From positions 62,001 to 126,000 of the forward strand of contig JAPJBO010000377.1 of assembly GCA_030068145.1 (NCBI GenBank): 64,000 nt of DNA, given 5' to 3'. Source of the stretch: Diplonema papillatum (Eukaryota > Euglenozoa > Diplonemea > Diplonemida > Diplonemidae). The notes below the pieces were generated by a model. That model did no database searches and had not been told where the DNA came from. It worked only from the letters and a program-made list of their open reading frames with translations. Shown in pieces: positions 222 through 62,900 of the stretch; the first letter of the stretch is position 1, and the number at the start of each line of letters is the position of its first letter. Made by a program: the position numbers and the translations under genes.

Positions 222-2489
222 TCTCTCTCTCTCTTTCGCAAAGGGTCGCGTTGGCAGAAACGGTGAAGATAATAATTGTCACAGGGTTGGTGAAATGAAA
301 GCGGGAATTTGGAATCGAATCCCTGGACGTGAAACTAAGAGCCGACATCCGGCTGCCTCCGGGTAGCTCAAAACAGTTAAACAGCGCCCTCGGGCGTGCT
401 CACAAAACAATGGTGCAGCGCGGAGCGCTAACAATGAGATGGACGACAGGGTGGCTGGACGCACTTCCCGTAATCCTCTAGCAACGTCCTCAGACGTGAG
501 AAAATAGAAATAGGCGGACATCACGCAATGCAGAAAGGGACGCGAGGAGGCGGAATGCCTCAGCAGTCGGAACCCACACAGTCTCGAGAACACATTGGTG
601 TTCTTCCAACACGTCGCGGACCTGGCAGAGGATGAAGTTCCCGAGTTGGGTCTTCGACTTCCAATTCCTCAGACAGTTCACGGCGGGCAAGTTGTCGACA
701 AATATTCTTATTGTCGATGGCGGAGAGCGCGAAGCCGCGTACGCAATCGCAAACTTTGCCGCCGTTAATCCGACAAGGAGATGTTCTGCGGGACATCTCT
801 CCACGGTCCCCACATTGCCATGGAACCCACCAGCCAGGCTCATCCCTGCATGCTGGCGTCGGACCATGCCTCGACGAGGGTATCCCGCTGGCAAAGCGGC
901 GTGCCCCACACTGTCCACGCCCCAGATGGTGGTCCCGACGACCTTCCAGATCCAGCACGGTCATCTGTGCCGACTCAGCTGAGCAAAACAGCAGGTGCGC
1001 TTTTCTCGCCCACTCCTGTTTCAGCCTGTACGTCTTCGCCGCGAGGTCGAATTCTACCCCGAGGACGACTGGTTTCGAGCTGGGCTCGAGGACGGATTTC
1101 TCGTCGTTGACTGTCATGCGCACCTTGCGGGCACGCGGCAAAACTCGGTCGCGCACGGCGCGAAGCGCATCCGGACAGTCTTCAACGAGGGCCCAGTCGT
1201 CGTACCAGACTATCTTATCGTCCCCGGCAGGCTCCGTGATGACAAGCGCCGAGTCCTGCGCAATCACGGGCGAGAAAGACCAGCCCATCGTCAGCCGGCG
1301 CCACCTATACAGAGCCACGCCCCCGTCGAGCTTCCTTGTGCGGAGCCCGAAGAAAGCTGACGTCGACCGTCCTACTGGGAACTGGAAGAAGTAGGACTTC
1401 AGGTCAACGACATCTTCGCGATGACCTCGTCGACACGCAAGAGGCTGAACTTCGGCGGGGGCTCCATCAGCTCGTTCAGTGGGCGGCCGTCAACGATGGC
1501 CCGCGAGTGTTCGCCCTTTTCAACAGCAAAAGCCGGAAGGACGCACTTCAGCGGCTCCGAACGGGGGACGCGCTCCACAAACCCAACGCTTTCCAGCGTC
1601 TGCGCATGGCGGGCAAACGCGTCGCTCTTCCGACCCGGCACGAGAGGAGTGCCCGTCCGTTAGGAGGTCAAACAGGCCGCGCAAGCGGGCCCCGGGGCCG
1701 GCGAGGCTCCGGAGCTTGCGGCGGCACTGCCGTGACGTCTAGCGGCCTCGCAGATCTCGGGGCACCGATGCCCGGAATGAGACCTCTCGTTTCTGGTGGG
1801 AGGTACCCGAGAGGAACTGCGCAGGAGGGTCGTAGAAATGGGGGTGGAGCCGGAGGAACAGCCTCCTCCCCCTGAGCAACCTGGTCAACCCCCTGACCTG
1901 CCGAGGCGAGAAGCCGGCGTCGGGCAAGGGTTGTTTCTGTCGTGTCGGGAAACGGCTTTCGCAAAGGGTAGGATGAGCTAATTCCGAGTGCCCGGATGCA
2001 TTCGTGGATGCGCTTCCCGGGTCTTCGTGTTGTGCGGCGTTGTCAGCCGGAGGCGGGAGTAGAGCCTCCGTCGTACTCGCCAGGGGGGACCAGCCCCCAG
2101 ACGACCGTTCCATGGTCTTCAGCTCCGACCGGCTTTCTCCCCCTTTCCCGCCGGCGAACGGGGGGCCACCGGACTCGCAAGGGCTCCATACCCGCCACTC
2201 CCGGGTGGCCTTGTCGGCAGCTTCCTCAGCCGCCGCCCAGTCAGGATCCACCAGCCGACGGCTGGTCCGTGCGACCCGGCGGCGCGTGCTACCCGTGTGC
2301 ACTGGCATTTTTTCCCTAGGAGGGTATGTATGATTAGGAGGAGAAAGGAAATAAAATGAAAGCGAGAATTTGGGGAGCCCAATAAAGTACAGAAACTGTA
2401 GCTTTTAAATCGTTCCTCCTACCTTTAACTCGCACCTACTTTCCGATACCAAATAGATGCTCTATTCAAACTCTCTCCCTCTCTCTCTC
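222..2489 (-). mobile_element. Retroelement copy A (RT/RNase H family), broken fossil
   Basis: This is a shorter relative of the element at 59015-61623, in the same orientation, flanked at both ends by CT tracts. Its minus strand shows pieces of the same proline-rich leader, reverse transcriptase and RNase H coding region. The coding part is broken, with roughly half a dozen or more interruptions including internal losses, so it is a dead copy. High identity to copy B over most shared stretches suggests a fairly recent origin. The 5' region on the minus strand carries a spliced-leader exon, listed separately. The right end lies 40 bp upstream of the 3' splice site of the next host exon, antisense to that gene. 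Family assignment (DIRS/VIPER-like or other LTR kin) is uncertain because I see no recombinase or integrase. Confidence 0.8.
2380..2414 (-). other. Diplonemid spliced-leader exon embedded in retroelement copy A
   Basis: The minus strand reads AACGATTTAAAAGC followed by ACAGTTTCTGTACTTTATTG, which is the 3' 35 nt of the Diplonema SL exon as I remember it. The next minus-strand bases are GGCTCCCC. In copy B the homologous site reads AG followed by GGCTTACCCC, so the SL is joined to the sequence that follows a 3' splice acceptor. An SL RNA gene would instead continue into the SL intron with a GT donor, which is absent. This is therefore a retrocopied trans-splice junction, not an SL RNA gene. 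Upstream of the SL are about 12 unexplained bases and then the normal element end. Confidence 0.88.
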
Positions 2490-2529: not shown

Positions 2530-5348
2530 GCACCATTTTCTACGAGTTGCTAGGGGCTTCCTTCTCGGTATTCGGAAAGCCGGGTGATGGCGGTGTGTAC
2601 TACGGCGTTGACTTCGTGAACGACATGGTGTACACCGCCGGGCCCAATGGCGTGTGCATCGTGGACTCCTCCAATTTCCAATTCTCAAACGCGATCCCTT
2701 GCGACGAGACCGCGACCACCGGCGGGACGGCGTGGGACGTCGAGGTGGACGCCACGGGGCGGTACCTGTACGTCTGCGACGGCAGCTCCGGGCTGCGGGT
2801 TTTTGCGGAGGAGACAGACGCGCCGCCGACCGACACCCCGCAGACCGAGGCACCGGCGACGGCCGCACCGGAGACAGCAGGCCCCGAAACGAAGGCGCCG
2901 GAGACGGGTGCTCCCGCCACGAGTGCGCCAGACACGAGCGCACCCGCGACGGGTGCACCCGATACGAATGCGCCAGACTCAAGCGCACCCGCGACGAATG
3001 CACCCGATACGAGTGTGCCAGAGACGACAGCTCCTGTTACGGCGGCGCCTGATACGGGAGTGCCTGACACGGCACCGCCTGATACCGCTGCTCCGGCCAC
3101 CGTGGCACCCGACAGCGCCGTTCCCGATACCAGTGCCCCAGCGACGAGTGCACCGACGTCATCGCCTGCCACGACGAGCCCGGCTACGACGCAGCCAAGC
3201 GCTGCGCCCACGGAAGCGCCGGCCACGGACCCCCCGGCCTCTTCCGTTCCGGACACGCAGGTCCCCGGCACGTCGGCTGCCCCCGCCACCGGTGCACCGG
3301 CGACGAACGCGCCGTCCGCCGCCCCGCAGACGGTCGCCCCGGCGACCAGCCTGCCGGCGCCCCCGCCGTTCACCTTCACGCCCCCGGCGCCGCCAACGCT
3401 CGCGCCCGCCACCGCGGCCCCCAGCACCGGTGTGCCCGCGTCCTCCGCCCCCACGACACCTTCCCCCGACTCCCCGTCGCCGGCGACGCCCCCGCCGGCC
3501 ACGGGGCGGCCGGCGGTGACGGCGCCGGTGGCTACCACCGAGGCGCCGCTCACTCTCACGCCCGACACGCCGGCGCCGACGACCGCGGCTCCGCCGCTGC
3601 CGGGTTCGGCGATGTCGGAGGAGAAGGAAAAAGTGGTCGACGACGTCGCCAAGATGGCGTCCGGGATGGGCGCGCCCGCCGCGCAGAGGTTGAACGTCGT
3701 CGCGCAGCTCGAATGCAGGGTCGAAGACGTGGACCTCGAGTCGGCCGAGCCACTCGACTGGGAGTTCCACCCCTTCGGGTTCGGAATCGGGGACCACGTG
3801 CACAAGTACTTCCTCGGCGCCATCGTCTCGAATTTGTTCATTGTCTTCTTCTTCGCCTTGATCAACCACGGCCTCGCTTTTCTGTTCACCATCACCTTCA
3901 GCGTCTCGTGGGGTACCGCGCTCTTCTACGCCAGGGCCCCCGGCTTGGTGTACATACCGGTCCTCTGGTTGATGATGGGCACTGCCCTCGCCTCGTCGAA
4001 CATGGCGTTCTTCCCGTCCCGTGCGCCCGGCGCCGTCGCGTTTGCCGGCTGGGTGGGGCTGATGTACTGCTGCGCGGTGCCGCTGATCATGTGGAACGTG
4101 CTCCTCCGCCCCGGGAAGTTCTTTGCGAAGACCATGAACGACCCGAAGCTCGGGAGCCCGGAGGACTTGAAACGGGAAGCGCCCGACCGATACGACCCTG
4201 ACGCCGGGAAGACCATCCTTCGGGGATGGAAGCGGAAGATATACATCTTCGCGTTCGGCAAGCAACTCTGGTACACCGTGGACGGCGGACCCGAGTACTT
4301 CGTCGAGAAGTATGGGCTGTTTTTCGAGCAGTACCGTGACCGGTACCACTGGTTCTCGGTCGTCGAGCTGCTGCAGGTGCTGATCCTCAGCTTGCTGTCC
4401 GTCTGGCACCCGACCACCACGACGGCGTGCACCGCCCGGAACGTGATGCTGATCACCCTCCTCGCGATCATTTTCTTCATGGTCGTCGTCCTCCGCCCGT
4501 ACAACTCGATGCTCGACCAATCGATCGGGACCCTCACTACTGGGTGTATGCTCGGCGCCGTCACGATGATGACGATTTCGATCGCCATGGAGGGCAGCCC
4601 CGCCTCCGTGTCAAACGCGCTGACGGAACTTGCCGCGGTCCTCCTCATCATCGCAGCCCTCAGCATGGTTATTAAAGGCTGTTACGACATCCTGCTGTAC
4701 GGGCTCGACATCTTCCTCGGCCGGCGGAAACAGGTTTTCGACGCGTCGTACGCTTTGAAGACCGAAGTGTACGACGCCGACGCTCGTTACATGAACACCT
4801 ACAGCGGGGAGGAGTATCACGAACTGTCCCCGAAACTGCAGGAGTCGGCGTGCGGGTCGCCGAAGGACGTCACGATGGTCCCGGTGGTACGCGCTGCGTA
4901 CCCTCCGTTGGGGATGGAGGAGACGTCGCCGCGGCTGCTGCCCATTTCGGTGCCGCCGTCGCCGGCCCGGCGGCCGTCGGTGGGCGCCGTCGGGCCGCTG
5001 GACGACTCCTCGTTCCGCATGCCGCAGCCGCCGGTGTCGCCTTCGAGGAAGTACTCGAGTCAGTTCTTCTCGTTGGACGACCCCTCGCCCCGGTCGACTT
5101 ACACCCGGCGCGCTTCGAACCACAATACGGCTCTGCTGCCTGACGTCGACGCTTCCGAAGCGCCGACGTCGGACACTTCGCAGAGCGTCGGCGACGGCGA
5201 CGAAGACTACGGCTCGACCCGCAAGCGCGGGTTGCCGGCTCCGTCGCCACCCCCCGGGCCCAGCAGCCCGCGGGTTATCAAGTCCACCTTCTTCAGCACG
5301 TCGACCGCGCCGCTGCCCATTCCGCCAGTCCGCCGCCAGGGGCCCTGA
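2530..5348 (+). CDS. Multipass membrane protein with TAP-rich stalk (last exon; 5' exons outside window)
   Basis: The exon probably begins after the acceptor ACGCACAG at 2522-2529 and runs open to TGA at 5346-5348, about 939 codons. No convincing ATG opens it, so earlier exons should lie to the left. Order of parts: a beta-propeller blade-like segment with YVCDGSSGLRVF (about 2532-2805); a long Thr/Ala/Pro stalk of APxT-type repeats (about 2806-3600), probably extracellular and O-glycosylated; hydrophobic helices between about 3796 and 4740, including a loop with EQYRDRYHWFSVVELLQ and VVLRPYNS; and a Ser/Pro-rich, presumably cytosolic tail. The helix region resembles the C-terminal transmembrane blocks of protist TRP/polycystin-like surface proteins, but I cannot name the family. 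The stalk is very GC-rich. Confidence 0.8.
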
Positions 5349-5473: not shown

Positions 5474-5875
5474 TGGACTCTTCGTTCCGCATGTCGCCTT
5501 CGAGGAAGTATTCGAGTCAGTTCTTCTTGTTGGACGACACCTCGCCCCGGTCGTCTTACGCCCGGCGCGCTTCGAGCCGCAACACGGCTCTGCTGCCTGA
5601 CGTCGACGCTTCCGACGTCGGACACTTCGCAGAGCGTCAGCGCCGGCGACGAAGACCACGGGTCGACCGGCAAGCGCGGGTCGCCGGTCCCGTCGCGGCC
5701 CCGGGCCCAGCAGCCCGCGGGTCATCACGCCCACTTTCTTCAGCACGTCGACCGCGCCGCTGCCCGTTCCGCCCGCCGCCAGGGGCCCTGAAATGCCCCC
5801 CCTTCCGTGGCTTCAAAACCGACCACCAGGGTTTGCGGTGTCGAGCACATATTCATTCCAAGGATGCTTCCAAGC
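5474..5875 (+). pseudogene. Decayed tandem duplicate of the 3' end of the preceding membrane-protein gene
   Basis: This repeats the last roughly 330 coding bases and part of the 3' flank of the upstream gene (compare about 5008-5440), including the SSF, SPSRKYSSQFF and NTALLPDVDAS peptides and the GGGGCCCTGA stop context. It lacks a 15-bp stretch after the SSFRM codons, and the frame shifts after DASDV, so it no longer encodes the original tail. The duplicated flank includes the ACATxCATTCCAAG string. Whether it is transcribed as an extended 3' UTR is unknown. Confidence 0.8.
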
Positions 5876-5910: not shown

Positions 5911-6052
5911 CCATTGCACTTATCGGTGGATTTCTTGGCTCTGCGATGAAGACCGCGGCCAGACGAGATAGTCAATGGGAATTGTCAGGTCGTCGAACGC
6001 ATTAGCGGGCTGGGCGCCCGTGCCCATCAGCAGATGTGAATATTCCCGGGGT
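5911..6052 (+). rRNA. 5.8S rRNA-like sequence (diverged or pseudogene)
   Basis: The segment follows the conserved 5.8S order: CGGTGGAT, CTTGGCTC, GATGAAGACCGC, GAGATA, GGGAATTGT, TCGAACGCA and a GC-rich 3' part ending in TATTCCCGGGG. Several universal positions differ (for example the AATTGCAGAA element), so it is either a fast-evolving euglenozoan 5.8S or a decayed copy. No 18S 3' end lies upstream, which makes a normal rDNA unit unlikely. At 6204-6225 a stretch resembling the 28S 5' end (CCTGACCTCG) follows, with low confidence. Confidence 0.65.
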
Positions 6053-29058: not shown

Positions 29059-32000
29059 TCACACGCTGTACGCTATCAGTGCGTACTCGTTTTCCACCCC
29101 CCACCGAACTATCCTCGTGCAAGGATTTGTATAACGGCGGTTCAAGAAGGCAGTGCGCTATCAGTGCGTCCTCGTTTTCCACTCCCACCGAAGATGCATT
29201 TTTCATGTTTGTCACTATGCCCAGTTTCCGACTCATCTGGCATTGCTGTCCGCAACTTGATCCTCATGCAAGGATTTGTATAGCGGCGGTTCAAGAAGGC
29301 AGCCCGCTATTAGTGCGTACTCGTTTTCCACCCCCACCGAAGATGCAGAATTCATTTGTCACTATGCCCAGTTTCTGACTGCTCTGGTATTGCTGTCCGC
29401 AACTTTATCCTCGTGCAAGGATTTGCGTAACGGCGGTTCAAGAAGGCAGTACGCTATTAGTGCGTACTCGTTTTCCACCCCCACCGAAGATGCAGTTTTG
29501 TTTTTGTCACCATGTCCAGTTTCGACTGTTCTGATATTGCCGTTGCAACTTAATCCTCGTGCAAGGATTTGCGTAACGGCGGTTCAAGAAGGCAGTGCGC
29601 TATTCGTGCGTACTCGTTTTCCACCCCCACCGGAGATGCACTATCGTTTTTTGGTCTAATTTCCGACTACTTCTGATTCAAGTATTTGTAACGGCGGTTC
29701 AAGAAGGCAGTACGCGGTACGTGCGTACTCGTTTTCCACCCCCACCGAAGATGCAGCTTTGATTCTTGACTGTTCTGGTATCGCAGTCCGCATTATCCTC
29801 GTGCAAGGGTTTGTAAAACGGCGGTTCAAGAAGGCAGTACGCTATTAGTGCGTACTCGTTTTCCACCCCCACCGAAGATGCAGTTTTGTTTTGTGACTAT
29901 GTCCAATTTCGACAGTTCTGGTATTGCTGTCCGCAACTTGATCCTCGTGCAAGGATTTGTGTAACGGCGGTTCAAGAAGGCTGTACGTTATCAGTGCGTA
30001 CACGTTTTCCACCCCCACCGAAGATGCAGTTTTGCCACCATGTCCAGTTTCGACAGTTCTGGTATTGCTGTCCGCAACTTAATCCTCGTGCAATGATTTG
30101 TGTAACAGCGGTTCAAGAAGGCAGTACGCTATTAGTGCGTACTCGTTTTCCACCCCCACCCGAAGATGCAGAATTCATTTGTCACTATGCCCAGTTTCTG
30201 ACTGCTCTGGTATTGCTGTCCGCAACTTTATCCTCGTGCAAGGATTTGCGTAACGGCGGTTCAAGAAGGCAGTACGCTATTAGTGCGTACTCGTTTTCCA
30301 CCCCCACCGAAGATGCAGTTTTGCCACCATGTCCAGTTTCGACAGTTCTGGTATTGCTGTCCGCAACTTAATCCTCGTGCAATGATTTGTGTAACAGCGG
30401 TTCAAGAAGGCAGTACGCTATTAGTGCGTACTCGTTTTCCACCCCCACCCGAAGATGCAGAATTCATTTGTCACTATGCCCAGTTTCTGACTGCTCTGGT
30501 ATTGCTGTCCGCAACTTTATCCTCGTGCAAGGATTTGCGTAACGGCGGTTCAAGAAGGCAGTACGCTATTAGTGCGTACTCGTTTTCCACCCCCACCGAA
30601 GATGCAGTTTTGTTTTTGTCACCATGTCCAGTTTCGACTGTTCTGATATTGCCGTTGCAACTTAATCCTCGTGCAAGGATTTGTGTAACGGCGGTTCAAG
30701 AAGGCTGTACGTTATCAGTGCGTACACGTTTTCCACCCCCACCGAAGATGCAGTTTTGCCACCATGTCCAGTTTCGACAGTTCTGGTATTGCTGTCCGCA
30801 ACTTAATCCTCGTGCAATGATTTGTGTAACAGCGGTTCAAGAAGGCAGTACGCTATTAGTGCGTACTCGTTTTCCACCCCCACCGAAGATGCAGAATTCA
30901 TTTGTCACTATGCCCAGTTTCTGACTGCTCTGGTATTGCTGTCCGCAACTTTATCCTCGTGCAATGATTTGTGTAACAGCGGTTCAAGAAGGCAGTACGC
31001 TATTAGTGCGTACTCGTTTTCCACCCCCACCGAAGATGCAGTTTTGTCACCATGTCCAGTTTCGACAGTTCTGGTATTGCTGTCCGCAACTTAATCCTCG
31101 TGCAATGATTTGTGTAGCGGCGTAACGGCGGTTCAAGAAGGCAGTACGCTGCGTACTCGTTTCCACCCCCACCGAAGATGCAGTTTTGTCACCATGTCCA
31201 GTTTCGACAGTTCTGGTATTGCTGTCCGCAACTTAATCCTCGTGCAATGATTTGTGTAGCGGCGTAACGGCGGTTCAAGAAGGCAGTACGCTGCGTACTC
31301 GTTTTCCACCCCCACCGAAGATGCAGTTTTGTCACCATGTCCAGTTTCGACAGTTCTGGTATTGCTGTCCGCAACTTGATCCTCGTGCAATGATTTGTGT
31401 AACGGCGGTTCAAGAAGGCAGTCCGCTATTAGTGCGTACTCGTTTTCCACCCCCACCGAAGATGCAGTTTTGTCACCATGTCCAGTTTGGTATTGCTGTC
31501 CGCAACTTGATCCTCGTGCAATGATTTGTGTAACGGCGTAACGGCGGTTCAAGAAGGCAGTACGCTATTAGTGCGTACTCGTTTTCCACCCCCACCGAAG
31601 ATGCAGTTTTGTCACCATGTCCAGTTTCGACAGTTCTGGTATTGCTGTCCGCAACTTAATCCTCGTGCAATGATTTGTGTAGCGGCGTAACGGCGGTTCA
31701 AGAAGGCAGTACGCTGCGTACTCGTTTTCCACCCCCACCGAAGATGCAGTTTTGTCACCATGTCCAGTTTCGACAGTTCTGGTATTGCTGTCCGCAACTT
31801 GATCCTCGTGCAATGATTTGTGTAACGGCGGTTCAAGAAGGCAGTCCGCTATTAGTGCGTACTCGTTTTCCACCCCCACCGAAGATGCAGTTTTGTCACC
31901 ATGTCCAGTTTGGTATTGCTGTCCGCAACTTGATCCTCGTGCAATGATTTGTGTAACGGCGTAACGGCGGTTCAAGAAGGCAGTACGCTATTAGTGCGTA

Positions 32001-34012
32001 CTCGTTTTCCACCCCCACCGGAGATGCAGTTTTGTCACCATGTCCAGTTTCGACAGTTCTGGTATTGCTGTCCGCAACTTGATCCTCGTGCAATGATTTG
32101 TGTAACGGCGGTTCAAGAAGGCAGTACGCTATTAGTGCGTACTCGTTTTCCACCCCCACCGAAGATGCAGTTTTGTCACCATGTCCAGTTTGGTATTGCT
32201 GTCCGCAACTTGATCCTCGTGCAATGATTTGTGTAACGGCGTAACGGCGGTTCAAGAAGGCAGTACGCTATTAGTGCGTACTCGTTTTCCACCCCCACCG
32301 GAGATGCAGTTTTGTCACCATGTCCAGTTTCGACAGTTCTGGTATTGCTGTCCGCAACTTGATCCTCGTGCAATGATTTGTGTAACGGCGGTTCAAGAAG
32401 GCAGTACGCTATTAGTGCGTACTCGTTTTCCACCCCCACCGAAGATGCAGTTTTGTCACCATGTCCAGTTCTGGTATTGCTGTCCGCAACTTGATCCTCG
32501 TGCAATGATTTGTGTAACGGCGTAACGGCGGTTCAAGAAGGCAGTACGCCATTAGTGCGTACTCGTTTTCCACCCCCACCGAAGATGCAGTTTTGTCACC
32601 ATGTCCAGTTTGGTATTGCTGTCCGCAACTTGATCCTCGTGCAATGATTTGTGTAACGGCGTAACGGCGGTTCAAGAAGGCAGTACGCTATTAGTGCGTA
32701 CTCGTTTTCCACCCCCACCGGAGATGCAGTTTTGTCACCATGTCCAGTTTCGACAGTTCTGGTATTGCTGTCCGCAACTTGATCCTCGTGCAATGATTTG
32801 TGTAACGGCGGTTCAAGAAGGCAGTACGCTATTAGTGCGTACTCGTTTTCCACCCCCACCGAAGATGCAGTTTTGTCACCATGTCCAGTTTGGTATTGCT
32901 GTCCGCAACTTGATCCTCGTGCAATGATTTGTGTAACGGCGTAACGGCGGTTCAAGAAGGCAGTACGCTATTAGTGCGTACTCGTTTTCCACCCCCACCG
33001 GAGATGCAGTTTTGTCACCATGTCCAGTTTCGACAGTTCTGGTATTGCTGTCCGCAACTTAATCCTCGTGCAATGATTTGTGTAACGGCGGTTCAAGAAG
33101 GCAGTACGCTATTAGTGCGTACTCGTTTTCCACCCCCACCGAAGATGCAGTTTTGTCACCATGTCCAGTTTCGACCGTTCTGGTATTGCTGTCCGCAACT
33201 TGATCCTCGTGCACGGATTTGTGTAACGGCGGTTCAAGAAGGCAGTCCGCTATTAGTGCGTACTCGTTTTCCACCCCCACCGAAGATGCAGTTTTGTTTT
33301 TGTGCCTGTGCCCAATTTTGACAGTTCTGGTATTGCTGTCCGCAACTTGATTCTCGTGCACGGATTTGTGTAACGGCGGTTCAAGAAGGCAGTGCGCTAT
33401 CAGTGCGTACTCGTTTTCCACCCCCACCGGAGATGCAGTTCTGTTTTTGTGAACATGTCCAGTTTCGACTGTTCTGATATTGCCGTTTGCAACTTAATCC
33501 TCGTGCAAGGATTTGTGTAACGGCGGTTCAAGAAGGCAGTACGCTATTCGTGCGTACTCGTTTTCCACCCCCACCGAAGATGCAGTTTTGGCACCATGTC
33601 CAGTTTCGACAGTTCTGGTATTGCTGTCCGCAACTTGATCTTCGTGCAATGATTTGTGTAACGGCGGTTCAAGAAGGCAGTACGCTATGAGTGCGTACTC
33701 GTTTTCCACCCCCACCGGAGATGCACTATCTATACAAATTTTGGGTCTAATTTCCGACTACTTCTGATTCACGTATTTGCAACGGCGGTTCAAGAAGGCA
33801 GTACGCTGTCTGTGCGTACTCGTTTTCCACCCCCACCGAAGATGCAGTTTGTTTTTGTCAACATGTCCAGTTTCGACTGTTCTGATATTGCCGTTTGCAA
33901 CTTAAACCTCGTGCAAGGATTTGCGTAACGGCGGTTCAAGAAGGCAGTACGCTATTAGTGCGTCCTCGTTTTCCACCCCCACCGAAGATGCAGATTTTGT
34001 TTTGGTGACCGG
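29059..34012 (+). repeat. Satellite array, about 35 units of about 140 bp, with higher-order repeats
   Basis: Each unit has GTAACGGCGGTTCAAGAAGG, an AGTACGC...GCGTACT hairpin, TTTTCCACCCCCACCGAAGA, TGTCCAGTTTCGAC, GGTATTGCTGTCCGCAAC and CTCGTGCAATGATTTG. Units are 130-155 bp at the edges and more uniform in the centre. Between 31189 and 32035 a 423-bp three-unit block is repeated almost exactly, and 280/420-bp blocks follow to about 33060. The long open frames through the array exist on both strands and change with each unit, so I treat it as non-coding. Confidence 0.96.
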
Positions 34013-49965: not shown

Positions 49966-50200
49966 CTCTCTCTCTCTCTCTCTCCCTCTGCTTCCCTCTC
50001 TCTGTCTCTCTCTCTCACTCTCGGAAAAGGTCGCGTTGGCAGAAACGGTGAAGATGATAATCGTCACAGGGTTGGTAAAATGAAAGCGAGAATTTGGGGT
50101 AAGCCCTGTTTACTAGACTCACGGTTAAAAGAAGCTGGCCGCACAAGGTTTACCTGGTCATCGCACCCACTTTCCGATGGCAAATAGATCTATTCCAACT
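49966..50200 (-). mobile_element. Short terminal remnant of the retroelement family
   Basis: The left end of copies A and B (CT tract, GGTCGCGTTGGCAGAAACGG, GTCACAGGGTTGGT) is joined directly to their right end (TAAGCCCTG, CACTTTCCGATG, AAATAGAT) through one copy of the TGAAAGCGAGAAT string that occurs at both edges of the full elements. The coding interior is absent. It looks like a solo-terminal form, possibly made by recombination between the two repeated strings. The minus strand retains the AAACAG-GGCTTACC acceptor. Confidence 0.75.
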
Positions 50201-50482
50201 CGGAAACGGTCCGCGCAGTATCGATGGCAATGAGAACACACGCAGATATGGCTGAGAAGAAGCCCAGGGACTGTTAAGGCGTGACTACCCCCCCCCCTGT
50301 GCCACAAAGCTGCACCCTTTGACTTGTTTTGATGTGCCCCTCTTTACCTCTCTCTTTCCCTCTCTTCGGGTGCACCGAGCGAAAAAAGGCTCACTTTTGG
50401 GTGGCCGGCAATCATTCGATTGACACGGGTAGCACTATCACAACCGATCGGACATGTCCGCAGCAGGGAAGGGGTGGAGGGA

Positions 50483-56900: not shown

Positions 56901-59900
56901 CTCGGCACTCGCAGGTGGCCGCTGACGTTGTCCTGCTCGCGGGGCCGCGCGGAAGGGCGCCGATGGCCAGCGCCGACCTGCCGGTGGGGACCCACACCAT
57001 CTTCACCCTCATCTTCCTCGACACATCCGTCGACTTCGACTCCCTCGAGGCCTTCGGGGCCAGCGCATGCCCTTCGGGTTCCGCTGTCGGGGTCGGGTAC
57101 GACGGCCCGTGCTACCTGGCGGAGGTGGTCAACGTTACTTTGTCTTCGAAGCCGCTTGCCGACTTCCTCGCCTCCGCGACGACAGCGGCACTCGACGACA
57201 AGGTGCCCCCCACCTCCGGATTCGCAGCGGTCACCCTCGCTTCGAAGCACATCGCTGCGCTCGGACGCGCTGATACCGCGTCTTCTCTGCGTAGCTCGCT
57301 TGCCAATTCGATCCTTGCGGTATACCCACCTTTCCAAACTCAGCTTTTTGACAAGAAATCCCACCCGCCGCCGGGTACTGCTTTGCGTGACCTTAACAGG
57401 TGGGTTTCAGGTCCCCCCGCAGTGGTCATGGGGGGGCCTTCACGTGGCGACACTGTTGACCGCACCTTAATGGAGTCGCGGTCGCCGATCCCCCAACCGC
57501 CAGCATCATGTACTTGATGCGACGCGGAACAAGTGCTGACAGCACCGCCCGGCGAATAGAGGGCCTTAAAAGTGGCAAATCGACCGCTTTTTAGCAGCCA
57601 ATGGCCTGATGGCTGAGTGCACCCGAGCGGTATGCAGCGCCAGCTACAAAAGCGCAGGCCTAGTATTTCTTAGCCGCCCAAAGACACCTTTCCAACCTGT
57701 TTCTTGGGTGTGGGTGGCTTGAGCTGCAGTTTTCATGCCGTAAACCACCATTTCAGGTAGCTCGTCGCATGTCTCTAGCGTCAATTAATGTGACCGACCA
57801 TGTGGCAAACGGCCTGGTGGCTATCCAGAGCCTGACACTGCCAGCACCCGACGAAGCCGCAGTAGTGCTGCCTTCCGTATGCACTTCTTTTTTTACACGG
57901 GTTACAAAAAACACCAAGACTGGACTGAATATGTTGAAAACTGGCACTCATAAGTTTGGGTTTGTAGCACGAAGGGGAAATGCTGTGTGCGCGGAGGGCC
58001 GTCGCTGTGCTGACGTGCACGTCGCTCGTCAAAGCTGGGCATAGGAGCGATGGAACCCATCGAACCACCGGTAGCGGGTTTACTCCGCAGTCTCCCCCCC
58101 AGGGTAACGATTGCATCGCCGCTGCTGGCATAGTGTGGTATTCATCAGCATGCGCATCAAGAACACACACAAAGCAGCGCCGTGAGAGAGACTGCTTCTA
58201 AAAAAGCGAACAACCCCGAGGCGGTAAGAGAAGTCGCGTTGCGAACGCCCAGTCCGGTTGCATGACGGTCGTGAGACCATCACACCCTCCCCATTTGACT
58301 GCCCGCAGTCTCAACGGTCAACCGGAGACTCTCACGCGCCGATTTCTCAAACCTCCCGCACTGCACAGAGCGGTTCATTTGGTGGCTATCTACGCGGGAA
58401 GGTGCCTTTTGGGCCCAGTTGGATAGCAATGCTCCCACCTCGATTCAACTCCGTGGCCTTAAACCCGCGGGGTCGAGGTGGACACAATTGACCAAGATAA
58501 GAACCAACGCTAGCAATAGCAAGCGGTGTGTGGATGAAACAGGGCCATCGAGTGATAGCACGCCACCGCCCCCCTCAAGGGTTCATACCCACCTGCGGAG
58601 TCTTACAGTCCCTGCGACCCTTTTCTATTTTCCACTTTCTTCGACGAAGACTTGATGCTAGCATCAAACATGCATGAGAGGCAGTGTTCTGCCTAAACAT
58701 TAAGCCCGTAACAGCTGGAACGATGCCGTGCCTGAATACCCGCACGACGTACCCTTTGTTCAGTGGGAGTTGAGATTCTCCGTCAAGATGCTAGCCGCCG
58801 CCATAGGGCGGGCTATTGCCAAAAGAAGGAGAGCCCGCGAAACAACGTGTCAACACACGCCTGCCAGGCGGTCTCGTCCGCCAGTCAGAACGCCCCCGGC
58901 TGCGCCACCATCGGTGCAACAATCATCTTTGACAGGGCCACGGCTCGCTCCGCGCCCACGGCGCAACGACTTGCGCCCGCCTTAGTAGTACGGGATAGTA
59001 GTGGGGCGACCGGTCTCTCTCTCTCTCTCTCTCTCGGAAAAGGTCGCGTTGGCAGAAACGGTGAAGATGATAATTGTCACAGGGTTGGTGAAAGGAAAGC
59101 GAGAATGTGGAATAGAATCCCTGGACGTGAAACTAAAGGAGCCAACATCCGGCTGCCTCCGGGTAGCTCAAAACAGATAAACAGCGCCCTCGGGCGTGCT
59201 CACAAAACAATGGTGCTGCGCGGAGCGCCAACACTGAGATGGACGACAGGGTGGCTGGACGCACTTCCCGTAATCCTCTAGCAACGTCCTCAGACGTGAG
59301 AAAATAGAAATAGGCCGACATCACGCAATGCAGAAAGGGACGCGAGGAGGCGGAATGCCTTGCCTGTATGGGTCTCGTGTCCATACGTCCGCTAATTGCT
59401 CAGCGGTCGGAACCCACACAGTCTCGAGAACACATTGGTGTTCTTCCAACACGTCGCGGACCTGGCAGAGGATGAAGTTCCCGAGTTGGGTCTTCGACTT
59501 CCAATTCCTCAGACAGTTCACGGCGGGCAAGTTGTCGACAAAGATTCTTATTGTCGATAGCGGAGAGCGCGAAGCCGCGTACGCAATAGCAAACTTTGCC
59601 GCCGTTAATTCGGCAAAGAAGATATGCTGCGGGATATCTCTCCACGGTCCCCACATTGCCATGGAATCCACTAGCCAGGCCCATCCCTGCATGCTGGCGT
59701 CGGACCATGCCTCGACGAGGGTATCCCGCTGCTGCATGTCGAACGTGACCCACCGGTTCCCCGACAGACGCCGCCTCACCCCAGCAAGGAAAGGAAGGAC
59801 GTCGTCGCTCACTCGAACCAGCGACTCCCAGCCCAGGGTGCCTGTTAGGACCTGATGCGCCAGTGTCCCCATCCACGCAAGCACCGGGCTCACTCTGCAA

Positions 59901-62900
59901 AGCGGCGTGCCCCACACCGTCCACGCCCAGATGGCGGTCCCGACGACCTTCCAGATCCCGCGCACGGTCATCTGTGCCGACTCAGCTGAGCAAAACAGCA
60001 GGTGCGCTTTTCTCGCCCACTCCTGTTTCAGCCTGTACGTCTTCGCCGCGAGGTCGAATTCTACCCCGAGGACGACTGGTTTCGAGCTGGGCTCGAGGAC
60101 GGACTTCTCGTCGTTGACTGTCATGCGCACCTTGCGGGCACGCCGCAAAACTCGGTCGCGCACGGCGCGAAGCGCATCCGGACAGTCTTCAACGAGGGCC
60201 CAGTCGTCGTACCAGACTATCTTATCGTCCCCGGCAGGCTCCGTGATGACAAGCGCCGAGTCCTGCGCAATCACGGGCGAGAAAGACCAGCCCATCGTCA
60301 GCCGGCGCCACCTATACAGAGCCACGCCCCCGTCGAGCTTCCTTGTGCGGAGCCCGAAGAAAGCTGACGTCGACCGTCCTACTGGGAACTGGAAGAAGTA
60401 GGACTTCAGGTCAACGACGACTGCGTACGACTTCGACATCATCTTGGCGATGACCTCGTCGACACGCAAGAGGCTGAACTTCGGCGGGGGCTCCATCAGC
60501 TCGTTCAGCGGGCGGCCGTCAACGATGGCCCGCGAGTGCTGTTCGCCCTTTTCAACAGCAAAAGCCGGAAGGACGCACTTCAGCGGCTCCGAACGGGGGA
60601 CGCGCTCCACAAACCCAACGCTTTCCAGCGTCTGCGCATGGCGGGCAAACGCGTCGCTCTTCCGACCCGGCACGAGAGGAGTGCCCAACAACTTCCGTCG
60701 GAAGGAGTGCCCGTCCGTTAGGAGGTCAAGCAAGCCGTGCAAGCGGGCCCCGGGGCCGGCGAGGCTCCGGAGCTTGCGGAGATCGATCGGCGGCACTGCC
60801 GTGACGTCTAGCGGCCTCGCAGATCTCGGGGCACCGATGCCCGGAATGAGACCTCTCGTTTCTGGTGGGAGGTACCCGAGAGGAACTGCGGTAGGAGGGT
60901 CGTAGAAATGGGGGTGGAGCCGGAGGAAAAGCCTCCTCCCCCTGAGCAACCTGGACCTTCGCGACTTCAACCCCCTGACCTGCCGAGGCGAGAAGCCGGC
61001 GTCGGGCAAGGGTTGTTTCTGTCGTGTCGGGAAACGGCTGTCGCAAAGGGTAGGATGAGCTAATTCCGAGTGCCCGGGTGCATTCGTGGAAGCGCTTCCC
61101 GGGTCTTCGCGTTGTGCGGCGTTGCCAGCCGGAGGCGGGAGTAGAGCCTCCGTCGTACTCCCGCCAGGTCCTTCAAGTCTGCAGTCGGCCAGGGGGGACC
61201 AGTCCCCAGACGACCGTTCCATGCCGGTCTTCAGCTCCGACCGGCTTTCTCCCCCTTTCCCGCCGGCGAACGGGGGGCCGCCGACTCCCCGGGCTCGCAA
61301 GGGTTCCATACCCGCCACTCCCGGGTGGCCTTGTCGGCAGCTTCCTCAGCCGCCGCCCAGTCAGGATCCATCAGCCGACGGCTGGTCCGTGCGGCCCGGC
61401 GGCGCGTGCTACCCGTGTGTACCGGCATTTTTCCCGGAGGGTAGTGTATGATTAGGAGGAGAATGGAAATAAAAATGATAAAAATGAAAGCGAGAATGTG
61501 GGGTAAGCCCTGATTATTAGAATCACGGTTAAACGAAGCTAGCGCACAAGGTTTGCCTGATCTCGCACCTACTTTCCGATACCAAATAGATGCTCTATTC
61601 AAACTCTCTCTCTCTCTCTCTCTTAAACTAAGTTTTCCCCCCGCCGTTGTCCCACCCGCACCCGCACCCTCAGAGCGCGATGCTTGCTGCGATCACGTCG
61701 CTTGACATCATCGCTGCGTTCAATTACCGGCTGTGGCAGTCGTGCTGCAGCACGGCGGCCGTCCCGGCCGGGTGCGCGTCGCACGCGGACTGCGACGCGT
61801 CGTGCTGCGGGGCCCGGAGCTCTTCCAACGAGCTGCTGCGCCTCGCCAACGGCACGATGCAGGCCGCGAACGCGCTGATCGACGCCGCCGCCGACGCAAA
61901 GGCGCCGGAGCCGTGGCGCAGCCCCGACGAGAAGACGGCCGGGCTGTCAGACACGTCGCTGGCGTCCAGGCGGTCGTCCGCGCAGCTGATGGCGATGCTG
62001 GTCAACACGCTGCACGAGCAGGCCCTCGACGTGTGCAAGGCGCAGCTTGACGCTGTCGACGCAAACGGCACCGTCGAGCGGGGGCAGGGTGTCAGGGATC
62101 CGGAGCCGTACACGTCAGCGCTGTCCGCGATGACGGTCCACGTGTCCGGCAGCCACCGAAACGCGTCGATTTTCGCGCCAGACACGGCGTTCCTCGCCTC
62201 CTTCGCCGACGACGGGCTCGCGCCCATCCGCGTCACGGTGCCGCGGGCCGCCGCGATGGGCGGCGACGGCGGCCCGCACGTGTGCCGCGCGTTCATCGCG
62301 TTCTTCGACGTGCTGCTGTTCTCGGGGAACGGCGATCCGGCTGCGACGCCGTTCATGCCCGTGGTGTCCGCGAAGCTCACGGCAGTAGACGCGGCGCTCG
62401 CCGTGTCGCGTGCGCCGCAGCCCGCGTCGGTTCCGCTGTCCGTCAGCTTCGCGCCCCGCGAGCTGTCTAGCCTGTGGACCTCCTACGCAGTCCTGCAGTG
62501 GAACCACAGCAACGCCCAGTGGAAGCCCGCCGGCGCGCGGGTGTCGAGAAACGCGTCGGAGGTTGTCGTCGGAGGGTCGTTCGACCTGTTCTCGGTGCCT
62601 CCCTCCCCGTCTCCCCTCGGCCGAACGGCGTTCCAAACCGCCCCGCCGCCGACCTCGGCCACCCGCGAGTATTCGCGGGCGGCGCCGGCGAGGGGGTTCG
62701 CGGCCCTGCAGAGCGGCACGGCGGCGCTCACCGCGCCGGTCATCGGCGTTTCGGGGTTCGCGCCCGCGGACGACCGGTGCCTGGCGTGCGTCGTGATGCC
62801 CGTGTTCTGGGGGTCGTTCTCCGTGCTGCTCGTGTTGTCGGTGGTGTGGCACAGCAGGGACCGCAGGACCTACGAGGCAGGGTCGGTGCCCATCGAAATC

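What the first reader, a model, noticed from the sequence alone, without database searches (positions are those of the whole stretch)
2371..2420. Retroelement copy carrying a spliced-leader exon at a trans-splice junction
The minus strand has 35 nt of the diplonemid SL exon fused to GGCTCCCC. In copy B (near 61510) and the short remnant (near 50110) the same place reads CAG followed by GGCTTACC, a normal 3' splice acceptor. So the family's RNA is trans-spliced, and a trans-spliced RNA was copied into DNA. Unexpectedly, the element's own outer end sequence lies upstream of the SL, which simple retroposition does not explain; template switching or gene conversion into an existing copy may be needed.
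Basis: partly seen in the sequence, partly recalled or inferred. Interest (0 to 1): 0.92.

Follow-up and report, generated by a model that had tools for sequence, protein, structure and literature searches.

The report
Spliced leader caught inside retroelement copies
In a marine single-celled diplonemid, a family of jumping genetic elements carries in some DNA copies a piece of RNA leader that can only have been added after transcription, and those copies suggest how the element may regrow the end that RNA processing cuts off.

Summary
Window 2380-2414 (minus) matches exactly 35 nt of this genome's 39-nt spliced-leader (SL) exon, fused to the element where sister copies read CAG|GGCTTACC. The genome has 609 SL-like sites, 93 of them SL-RNA-gene-like. 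Eight places join the SL to this family's acceptor: six distinct junctions, one present three times. So trans-spliced RNA of this family was copied into DNA.

The element resembles VIPER: split direct repeats A1-ORFs-B1-GAG-A2-B2, mostly in GA tracts; one longer copy read in full has Gag-like, recombinase-like and reverse-transcriptase ORFs. The window's copies A and B look like deletion derivatives; the 50.1-kb remnant is a solo A-B unit, like T. cruzi SIRE.

This offers a source for the unexpected outer end upstream of the SL: the internal A2, or another copy's A-B unit, keeps a spare of what trans-splicing removes. Of six junctions, four have 15, 42, 46 or 126 nt of A next to the SL, one a second family's end, one unrelated sequence. 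Template switching is the best reading; later DNA recombination is not excluded, captures may number only two, and the recombinase is identified by motif alone.

The parts
2380..2414 (-). 35 nt of the 39-nt SL exon inside copy A, joined to GGCT at 2376-2379
2415..2428 (-). 14 nt of unknown origin between outer A1 end and SL in copy A (the SL's AACC is missing)
2429..2470 (-). Outer 42 nt of repeat A (TTTGAATAGAG...GGTGCGAG) upstream of the SL in copy A
2471..2473 (-). GAG at the target/element boundary of copy A, beside a GA-rich tract
313..2379 (-). Copy A body, frames broken (partial RT match 560-1318, 22.7 bits, below the Pfam cut-off of 29.6)
238..312 (-). Copy A terminal repeat B, followed by a GA tract; no A2-B2 present
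61482..61603 (-). Copy B repeat A1, unspliced (94 nt up to and including the acceptor CAG at 61510-61512, 28 nt after it); GAG at 61604-61606
59321..61318 (-). Copy B ORF, 665 aa, reverse transcriptase (RVT_1, 38 bits, E 1.8e-9); RNase H-like stretch by eye only
59036..59110 (-). Copy B terminal repeat B ending GCGACCTTTTCC, then GAG (59033-59035) and a GA tract
50023..50198 (-). Solo A-B unit (SIRE-like remnant) with acceptor CAG at 50106-50108; preceded by GAG (50199-50201) and the end of a second, related-looking repeat family

Best explanation
The thing is a family of VIPER-like (DIRS-order) retroelements of Diplonema papillatum with split direct repeats A1-ORFs-B1-GAG-A2-B2. SHOWN: the repeat plan; GAG between B and A and at the outer ends; GA-type flanks at most A starts; the SL joined at one acceptor inside A; in one 3.8-kb-class copy (L088) three ORF regions in the order Gag-like, recombinase-like, RT. 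INFERRED: element RNA is trans-spliced at that acceptor, losing the outer 94 nt of A1 (CAG included) and the GAG end. The internal B1-GAG-A2 keeps a spare. During reverse transcription the cDNA normally realigns on A2 through the 28 nt of A that lie after the acceptor, so the outer end is rebuilt and the SL is lost. In rare products the enzyme copied the SL to near its 5' end and then jumped into an A-B template, leaving outer A + SL + body; these could still be integrated at GA tracts. Copy A in the window is an old product of that kind.
For: The SL joins the same acceptor at 8 of 8 places holding the SL|GGCT string, none with the SL intron. Outer A lies upstream of the SL with different breakpoints: 15 nt (C11), 46 nt plus CC (C287 = C1444 = C1561, same flank), 42 nt plus 14 nt filler (copy A), 126 nt (C159); all four follow a GA tract. 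In C159 the join falls in ACCAAC, six letters shared by SL and element, and the upstream 126 nt equals that element's own A2 and first letters of B2, 126 of 126. B1-GAG-A2 was read in C11, C16, C159 and L088; 219 B-GAG-A junctions exist genome-wide, tandem B2-A1 joins included. Of 37 distinct A starts (A1, A2 and solo together) in L001-L087, 24 follow AGAGAG, 7 a B end, 3 AAGAAG, and one each GGAGAG, GAGGGA, AAATGG. The recombinase-like ORF of L089 has the expected residues at spacing 3/22/9. Acceptor-to-next-B-A distances of 58 places I could pair fall 30, 13 and 11 in the 2.3, 2.4 and 3.8-kb bins, 4 outside; SL copies C11, C16, C159 give 2331, 2330, 2334. The nearest non-SL body is 99.7-99.9% identical for the five subfamily-I junctions.
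Against: C16 has unrelated sequence upstream of the SL and C349 a second family's end. In C11 the outer letters (GTATC) differ from that copy's own A2 (GCATC). C159's 126 nt also equals A2 of at least four other loci, so the donor is not unique. Only C11, C16 and C159 were seen to have an A2; the C287 type is broken off about 890 nt into its body, C349 shows one B and then GA to the contig end, and neither window copy has A2. C287 and copy A have 2 and 14 extra letters instead of clean microhomology. The recombinase has no significant Pfam, NCBIfam, PHROG or PDB sequence match and the fold prediction failed (pLDDT 42.8). No RNA data were seen.
Confidence: 0.62

Rival explanations
1. SL-headed cDNAs were inserted first; their outer A end was acquired later by gene conversion or recombination with resident A-B units (DNA-level origin of the chimera).
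For: A units are abundant (699 acceptor sites) and near-identical, so conversion is easy; family-to-family swaps exist, e.g. C11's 3' end, where A2 runs into what looks like a second family's B.
Against: Needs conversions that each stop beside the SL and reach the GAG at the GA tract; A1-to-A2 distances of C11, C16 and C159 are ordinary.
Confidence: 0.2
2. Nested insertion: an SL-headed element inserted by end joining into a resident solo A-B unit or GA tract, and the upstream A is simply the old resident.
For: C11 has a partial A unit just upstream; C349 is preceded by a second-family unit.
Against: The remaining half of a resident A-B unit was not seen beyond the 3' GA tract of C159 (1,095 nt) or C11 (1,297 nt); C349's contig ends too soon to tell.
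Confidence: 0.1
3. One SL capture in subfamily I made a master copy that was later recopied, the 5' ends being rearranged each time; copy A (subfamily II) is a second capture. Captures would number two, not six. Compatible with the best explanation.
For: Five of the six distinct junctions are in near-identical subfamily I; the tree hardly resolves them.
Against: Letters before AACG differ among them (TATCC, GCGCC, TTCACC, TCACCACC, GTGCCACC). The tree needs 5 label changes, but 87 of 500 shuffles do as well, so it says little.
Confidence: 0.3
4. Assembly artefact or an inserted SL RNA gene fragment.
For: C287, C1444 and C1561 have the same flank and may be one locus assembled three times.
Against: The SL ends exactly at the donor and the element starts exactly at the acceptor at 8 of 8 places, without SL intron letters; other families also show the SL joined directly to their sequence.
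Confidence: 0.03

Closest known systems
VIPER (T. cruzi, C. fasciculata and others) and its short form SIRE
   Same: Split direct repeats A1 ... B1 A2 B2; ORFs Gag-like, YR, RT/RH; short form equal to A2-B2 (PMC6681497, passages). No target-site duplication (PMC12278014, passages; only a likeness, not settled here).
   Different: Diplonemid host; GA-type targets with a GAG boundary; two shorter size classes, the window's type without YR; SL retained at an internal splice junction. The passages read mention no SL-bearing VIPER copies. No sequence relatives outside D. papillatum were returned (capped candidate lists).
DIRS1-like and Ngaro/PAT elements
   Same: Model in which the ends match internal copies, giving a circle that recombines at a 3-bp junction without duplication (DIRS1-like, PMC3266345, passages).
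   Different: Here the A1 outer end would be removed by trans-splicing, and copies record an SL between outer end and body. DIRS1-like repeats are inverted, not split direct.
SL-tagged retrogenes of dinoflagellates (relict DinoSL)
   Same: An SL in genomic DNA marks a retroposed trans-spliced RNA (PMC6050394, passages).
   Different: Here, in 4 of 6 junctions, the element's own sequence lies upstream of the SL.
Elements reported in the D. papillatum genome paper
   Same: That paper mentions ORFs resembling TATE, a YR element (PMC10161547 and PMC12278014, passages).
   Different: The passages read do not describe this family, split repeats or SL-bearing copies; its supplements were not read.

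Membership tests
VIPER-like YR retroelement (DIRS order) | Split direct repeats A1 ... B1-A2-B2 | tested here: met
   3' ends of C159, C16 and L088 read in full; C11 has B1-A2 but a hybrid B2. Of 11 further A2 pieces, 8 run A2-B2, 2 lack B2, 1 runs into another body. 219 B-GAG-A junctions, tandem joins included. Window copies A and B lack A2.
VIPER-like YR retroelement (DIRS order) | ORF order Gag-like, YR, RT/RH | tested here: inconclusive
   Three ORF regions in that order in L088, but Gag-like rests on position and a sub-threshold zinc finger (16.5 bits, cut-off 27), YR on motif, RNase H on reading by eye. L088's YR frame is broken; L089 and many other stretches have an open frame of 350 codons. 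The window's copies lack YR.
VIPER-like YR retroelement (DIRS order) | Tyrosine recombinase catalytic residues | tested here: inconclusive
   332-aa ORF with R184, K221, K273, R276, H298, Y307, spacing 3/22/9; comparison with lambda Int spacing is recalled. No significant profile hit.
VIPER-like YR retroelement (DIRS order) | No target-site duplication; recombination at a short shared sequence | tested here: inconclusive
   GAG shared by the B1-A2 junction, the termini and GA-type targets; in a GA tract a duplication cannot be excluded.
VIPER-like YR retroelement (DIRS order) | RT/RH groups with VIPER in a tree | not tested
   RVT_1 match only; homolog searches returned only D. papillatum proteins (11 and 13 rows).
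SL-tagged retrocopy | SL exon joined to an AG acceptor position, no SL intron | tested here: met
   8 of 8 places.
SL-tagged retrocopy | SL at the 5' limit of the inserted DNA | tested here: not met
   4 of 6 distinct junctions have the element's own A upstream, 1 a second family's end; only C16 has unrelated sequence there.

The most novel reading that the evidence does not exclude
In an organism that trans-splices its mRNAs, split direct repeats act as an outron repair system: each replicating RNA loses the outer A1 with its recombination end, A2 (which runs 28 nt past the acceptor, perhaps enough to realign) restores it, and SL-bearing copies are fossilised misfires of that step. The A1-ORF-B and solo A-B forms would then be the two resolution products of recombination between the two GAG sites, which would explain SIRE-like units.
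Probability: 0.4. Interest if true: 0.82.

Novelty: new variant of a known kind. Interest (0 to 1): 0.66.

Why it matters
How tyrosine-recombinase retroelements rebuild their ends is, to my knowledge, a model resting mainly on repeat anatomy. A host that replaces the RNA's 5' end with a known tag gives a natural label: the SL records where the cDNA ended and what it was joined to. It also suggests a reason for the A repeat to span the splice acceptor, and points to a VIPER-like family outside kinetoplastids.

Tried and rejected
Nested insertion as the general cause: the missing half of a resident A-B unit was not seen in the 3' flanks read for C11 and C159. Segmental duplication of the SL copies: from the GA tract on, the 3' flanks of C11, C16 and C159 share only 53-180 nt, besides short dispersed-repeat matches elsewhere. 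A1 = A2 identity within elements as proof of restoration: 8 of 11 pairs identical, permutation p 0.0002 (the pair with L097 was dropped because L097 holds only the outer part of A before another body), but subfamily structure explains most of it, so it is only consistent. Structure prediction on a gene-model protein that lacks the stretch with R184: pLDDT 42.8, discarded. Tree of 23 body rows: SL copies not one group, but little support and 87 of 500 shuffles as low. In one search much of the printed output was GA-tract matches and the middle was cut; one search's output was cut by my script. Genome search for the Phage_integrase family did not complete.

Literature: 'spliced leader' + 'retrotransposon' + 'template switching' gave 0 papers; 'diplonemid' + 'spliced leader' + 'retrotransposon' 4, 3 listed; 'spliced leader' + 'retroposition' + 'relict' 4; 'tyrosine recombinase retrotransposon' + 'spliced leader' 3; 'outron' + 'retrotransposon' + 'trans-splic' 4; 'Diplonema' + 'retroelement' 2; VIPER/SIRE and split-repeat searches. 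SL-bearing YR elements were not seen in the listings or in the passages read (PMC10161547, PMC6681497, PMC3266345, PMC6050394, PMC12278014; PMC4006747 and PMC4395405 gave nothing of use). No paper was read whole; the library holds open PMC papers only.

Full report
What is in the window. The window is contig C377:62001-126000 of a 271-Mb assembly. That it is Diplonema papillatum is inferred: the homologs of copy B's ORF, up to 96% identical over the whole query, are named DIPPA_ gene models, and one of those lies on a contig of 247,050 bases, the length of C287. On the minus strand three copies of one repeat family lie at about 2473-238 (copy A), 61606-59033 (copy B) and 50201-50020 (short remnant). 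Copy A holds an exact 35-nt SL stretch at 2380-2414.

The SL is genuine. The published SL exon is 39 bp with a 75-nt intron, in 110 gene copies forming a repeat unit with 5S and U2 (PMC10161547, passages; no letters shown). Here 93 places carry the SL followed by the same GT-starting stretch, most in regular arrays; 5 of 6 fetched read TTAACC|AACGATTT and the sixth CCAACC|AACG, so the exon is AACC+35. SL sites in all: 609, reversed control 0. Thus roughly 500 SL sites lie outside SL RNA genes; the two counts use different patterns and mismatch limits. I looked at 30 of the 609. In the 28 of these that are not SL RNA genes, C is at -1 in 28, C at -2 in 25, A at -3 in 21, but A at -4 in only 9: copies usually start one letter short of the 39-nt exon. 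SL in DNA outside SL genes is therefore common here and not special to this family; one other family has 71 SL places.

SL copies of this family. The exact 28-mer with SL|GGCT occurs at 8 places: C11, C16, C159, C287, C349, C377 (copy A), C1444, C1561. Copies with changes in those 28 letters would be missed. C287, C1444 and C1561 share their flank and count as one. So there are six distinct junctions, all at the position where other copies have CAG|GGCT. The unspliced form is abundant: 699 acceptor sites at up to 3 mismatches (A1, A2 and solo together) and 261 with element body behind them (A1 type).

Anatomy. The 3' ends of C159 and C16 read B1 ...GCGACCTTTTCC-GAG-TTTGAATAGAG... A2 ...CAGGGCTTACCCCACATTCTCGCTTTCATTT-CACCAACC... 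B2 ...GCGACCTTTTCC-GAG-(AG)n; C11 has B1-GAG-A2 and then a hybrid B2. The same plan is in L088 on contig C1. There are 219 B-GAG-A junctions (2 mismatches or fewer), which include tandem B2-A1 joins such as L046, L052 and L056. Of 37 distinct A starts in L001-L087, 24 follow AGAGAG, 7 a B end, 3 AAGAAG, and one each GGAGAG, GAGGGA and AAATGG. Distances from acceptor to the next B-A junction, for the 58 places I could pair from the listed part of the results, fall 30, 13 and 11 in the 2.3, 2.4 and 3.8-kb bins, with 2000, 2286, 3797 and 7340 outside. One 3.8-kb-class copy read in full, L088, has a Gag-like region, a recombinase-like region (frame broken) and an RT region like copy B's by eye. 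The recombinase ORF in L089 (332 aa from its ATG) shows R184, K221, K273, R276, H298 and Y307, the arrangement I recall for tyrosine recombinases, but no library matched it significantly. A genome search with a 143-aa piece gave 134 matched stretches, with 150 of 328 candidates scored, many in an open frame of 350 codons; two stretches per copy are common, so copies are fewer. Copy B has only a Gag-like remnant by eye and the RT ORF (RVT_1), so the short classes look like deletion derivatives.

The upstream puzzle. Between the GAG target boundary and the SL lie 15 nt of A in C11, 46 nt of A plus CC and the SL's ACC in C287, 42 nt plus 14 unexplained letters in copy A, and 126 nt (all of A and CACC) in C159. 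C349 has a stretch of a second GA-flanked family up to ...CCTGTATGTG, then CCACC-SL; C16 has unrelated sequence. In C159 the join sits in the shared letters ACCAAC and the 126 nt equal the element's own A2-B2, but also that of at least four other loci. In C11 the outer letters differ by one from its own A2. So the donor is an A-B unit of the family, not provably the same element's. The C287 type is broken off about 890 nt into its body and C349's contig ends in its GA tract, so their own A2 could not be checked.

Mechanism. In the published DIRS1 model the ends match internal copies, giving a circle that recombines at three letters (PMC3266345, passages). VIPER has split repeats in the order found here, and SIRE equals A2-B2 (PMC6681497, passages). 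In this family trans-splicing would remove the outer 94 nt of A1; A2 holds the spare, and A extends 28 nt past the acceptor, perhaps enough for a spliced RNA's copy to realign. I infer that correct realignment drops the SL and that jumps from the SL's end give the SL copies. This is inference from DNA; conversion after insertion remains possible (rivals). The number of SL captures is at least two, because copy A belongs to another subfamily (about 77% to subfamily I, up to 90.3% to its own) while the five others are 99.5-99.9% alike in body.

The remnant and the short forms. The 50.1-kb unit is a solo A-B unit preceded directly by GAG and the end of the second family. Recombination between the two GAG sites, or between A1 and A2 or B1 and B2, would give A-ORF-B (copies A, B) and solo A-B; I cannot tell which.

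Verdict. The class of element is known; an SL caught between outer end and body of such an element was not seen in the searches I made.

Noticed in passing
Genome, e.g. L001, L005, L016, L019, L027: Another family, SL|GCTGCTCACGCGGCC, has 71 SL places at up to 3 mismatches and no exact AG|GCTGCTC counterpart (AG|CTGCTC was not tested). Several copies share upstream sequence that stops at different points before the SL.
   Followed up: partly
L001-L030: DNA copies of the SL mostly start at its second letter: A at -4 in 9 of 28, A at -3 in 21, C at -2 in 25, C at -1 in 28; perhaps the cap-proximal letter is not copied.
   Followed up: partly
window 5915-6043: 5.8S rRNA-like stretch, 47 bits against a cut-off of 42, beyond a partly duplicated gene end (5035-5158 and 5492-5615).
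   Followed up: no
window 29091-34000: Tandem array of units about 140-147 nt apart sharing GTGCGTACTCGTTTTCCACCCCCACCGAAGATGCA.
   Followed up: no
L035 upstream of SL, L069 after B2, window 50200-50380 (minus): A second GA-flanked repeat family ending GACCTTTCCCGAG or similar, with an apparent swap to this family at CACC in L068.
   Followed up: partly
L046, L047 (contig C8): Tandem elements sharing one B-GAG-A junction, as expected if integration uses GAG of an existing copy.
   Followed up: partly
L096, L098: Two copies end at A2 without B2, running straight into the GA tract.
   Followed up: no
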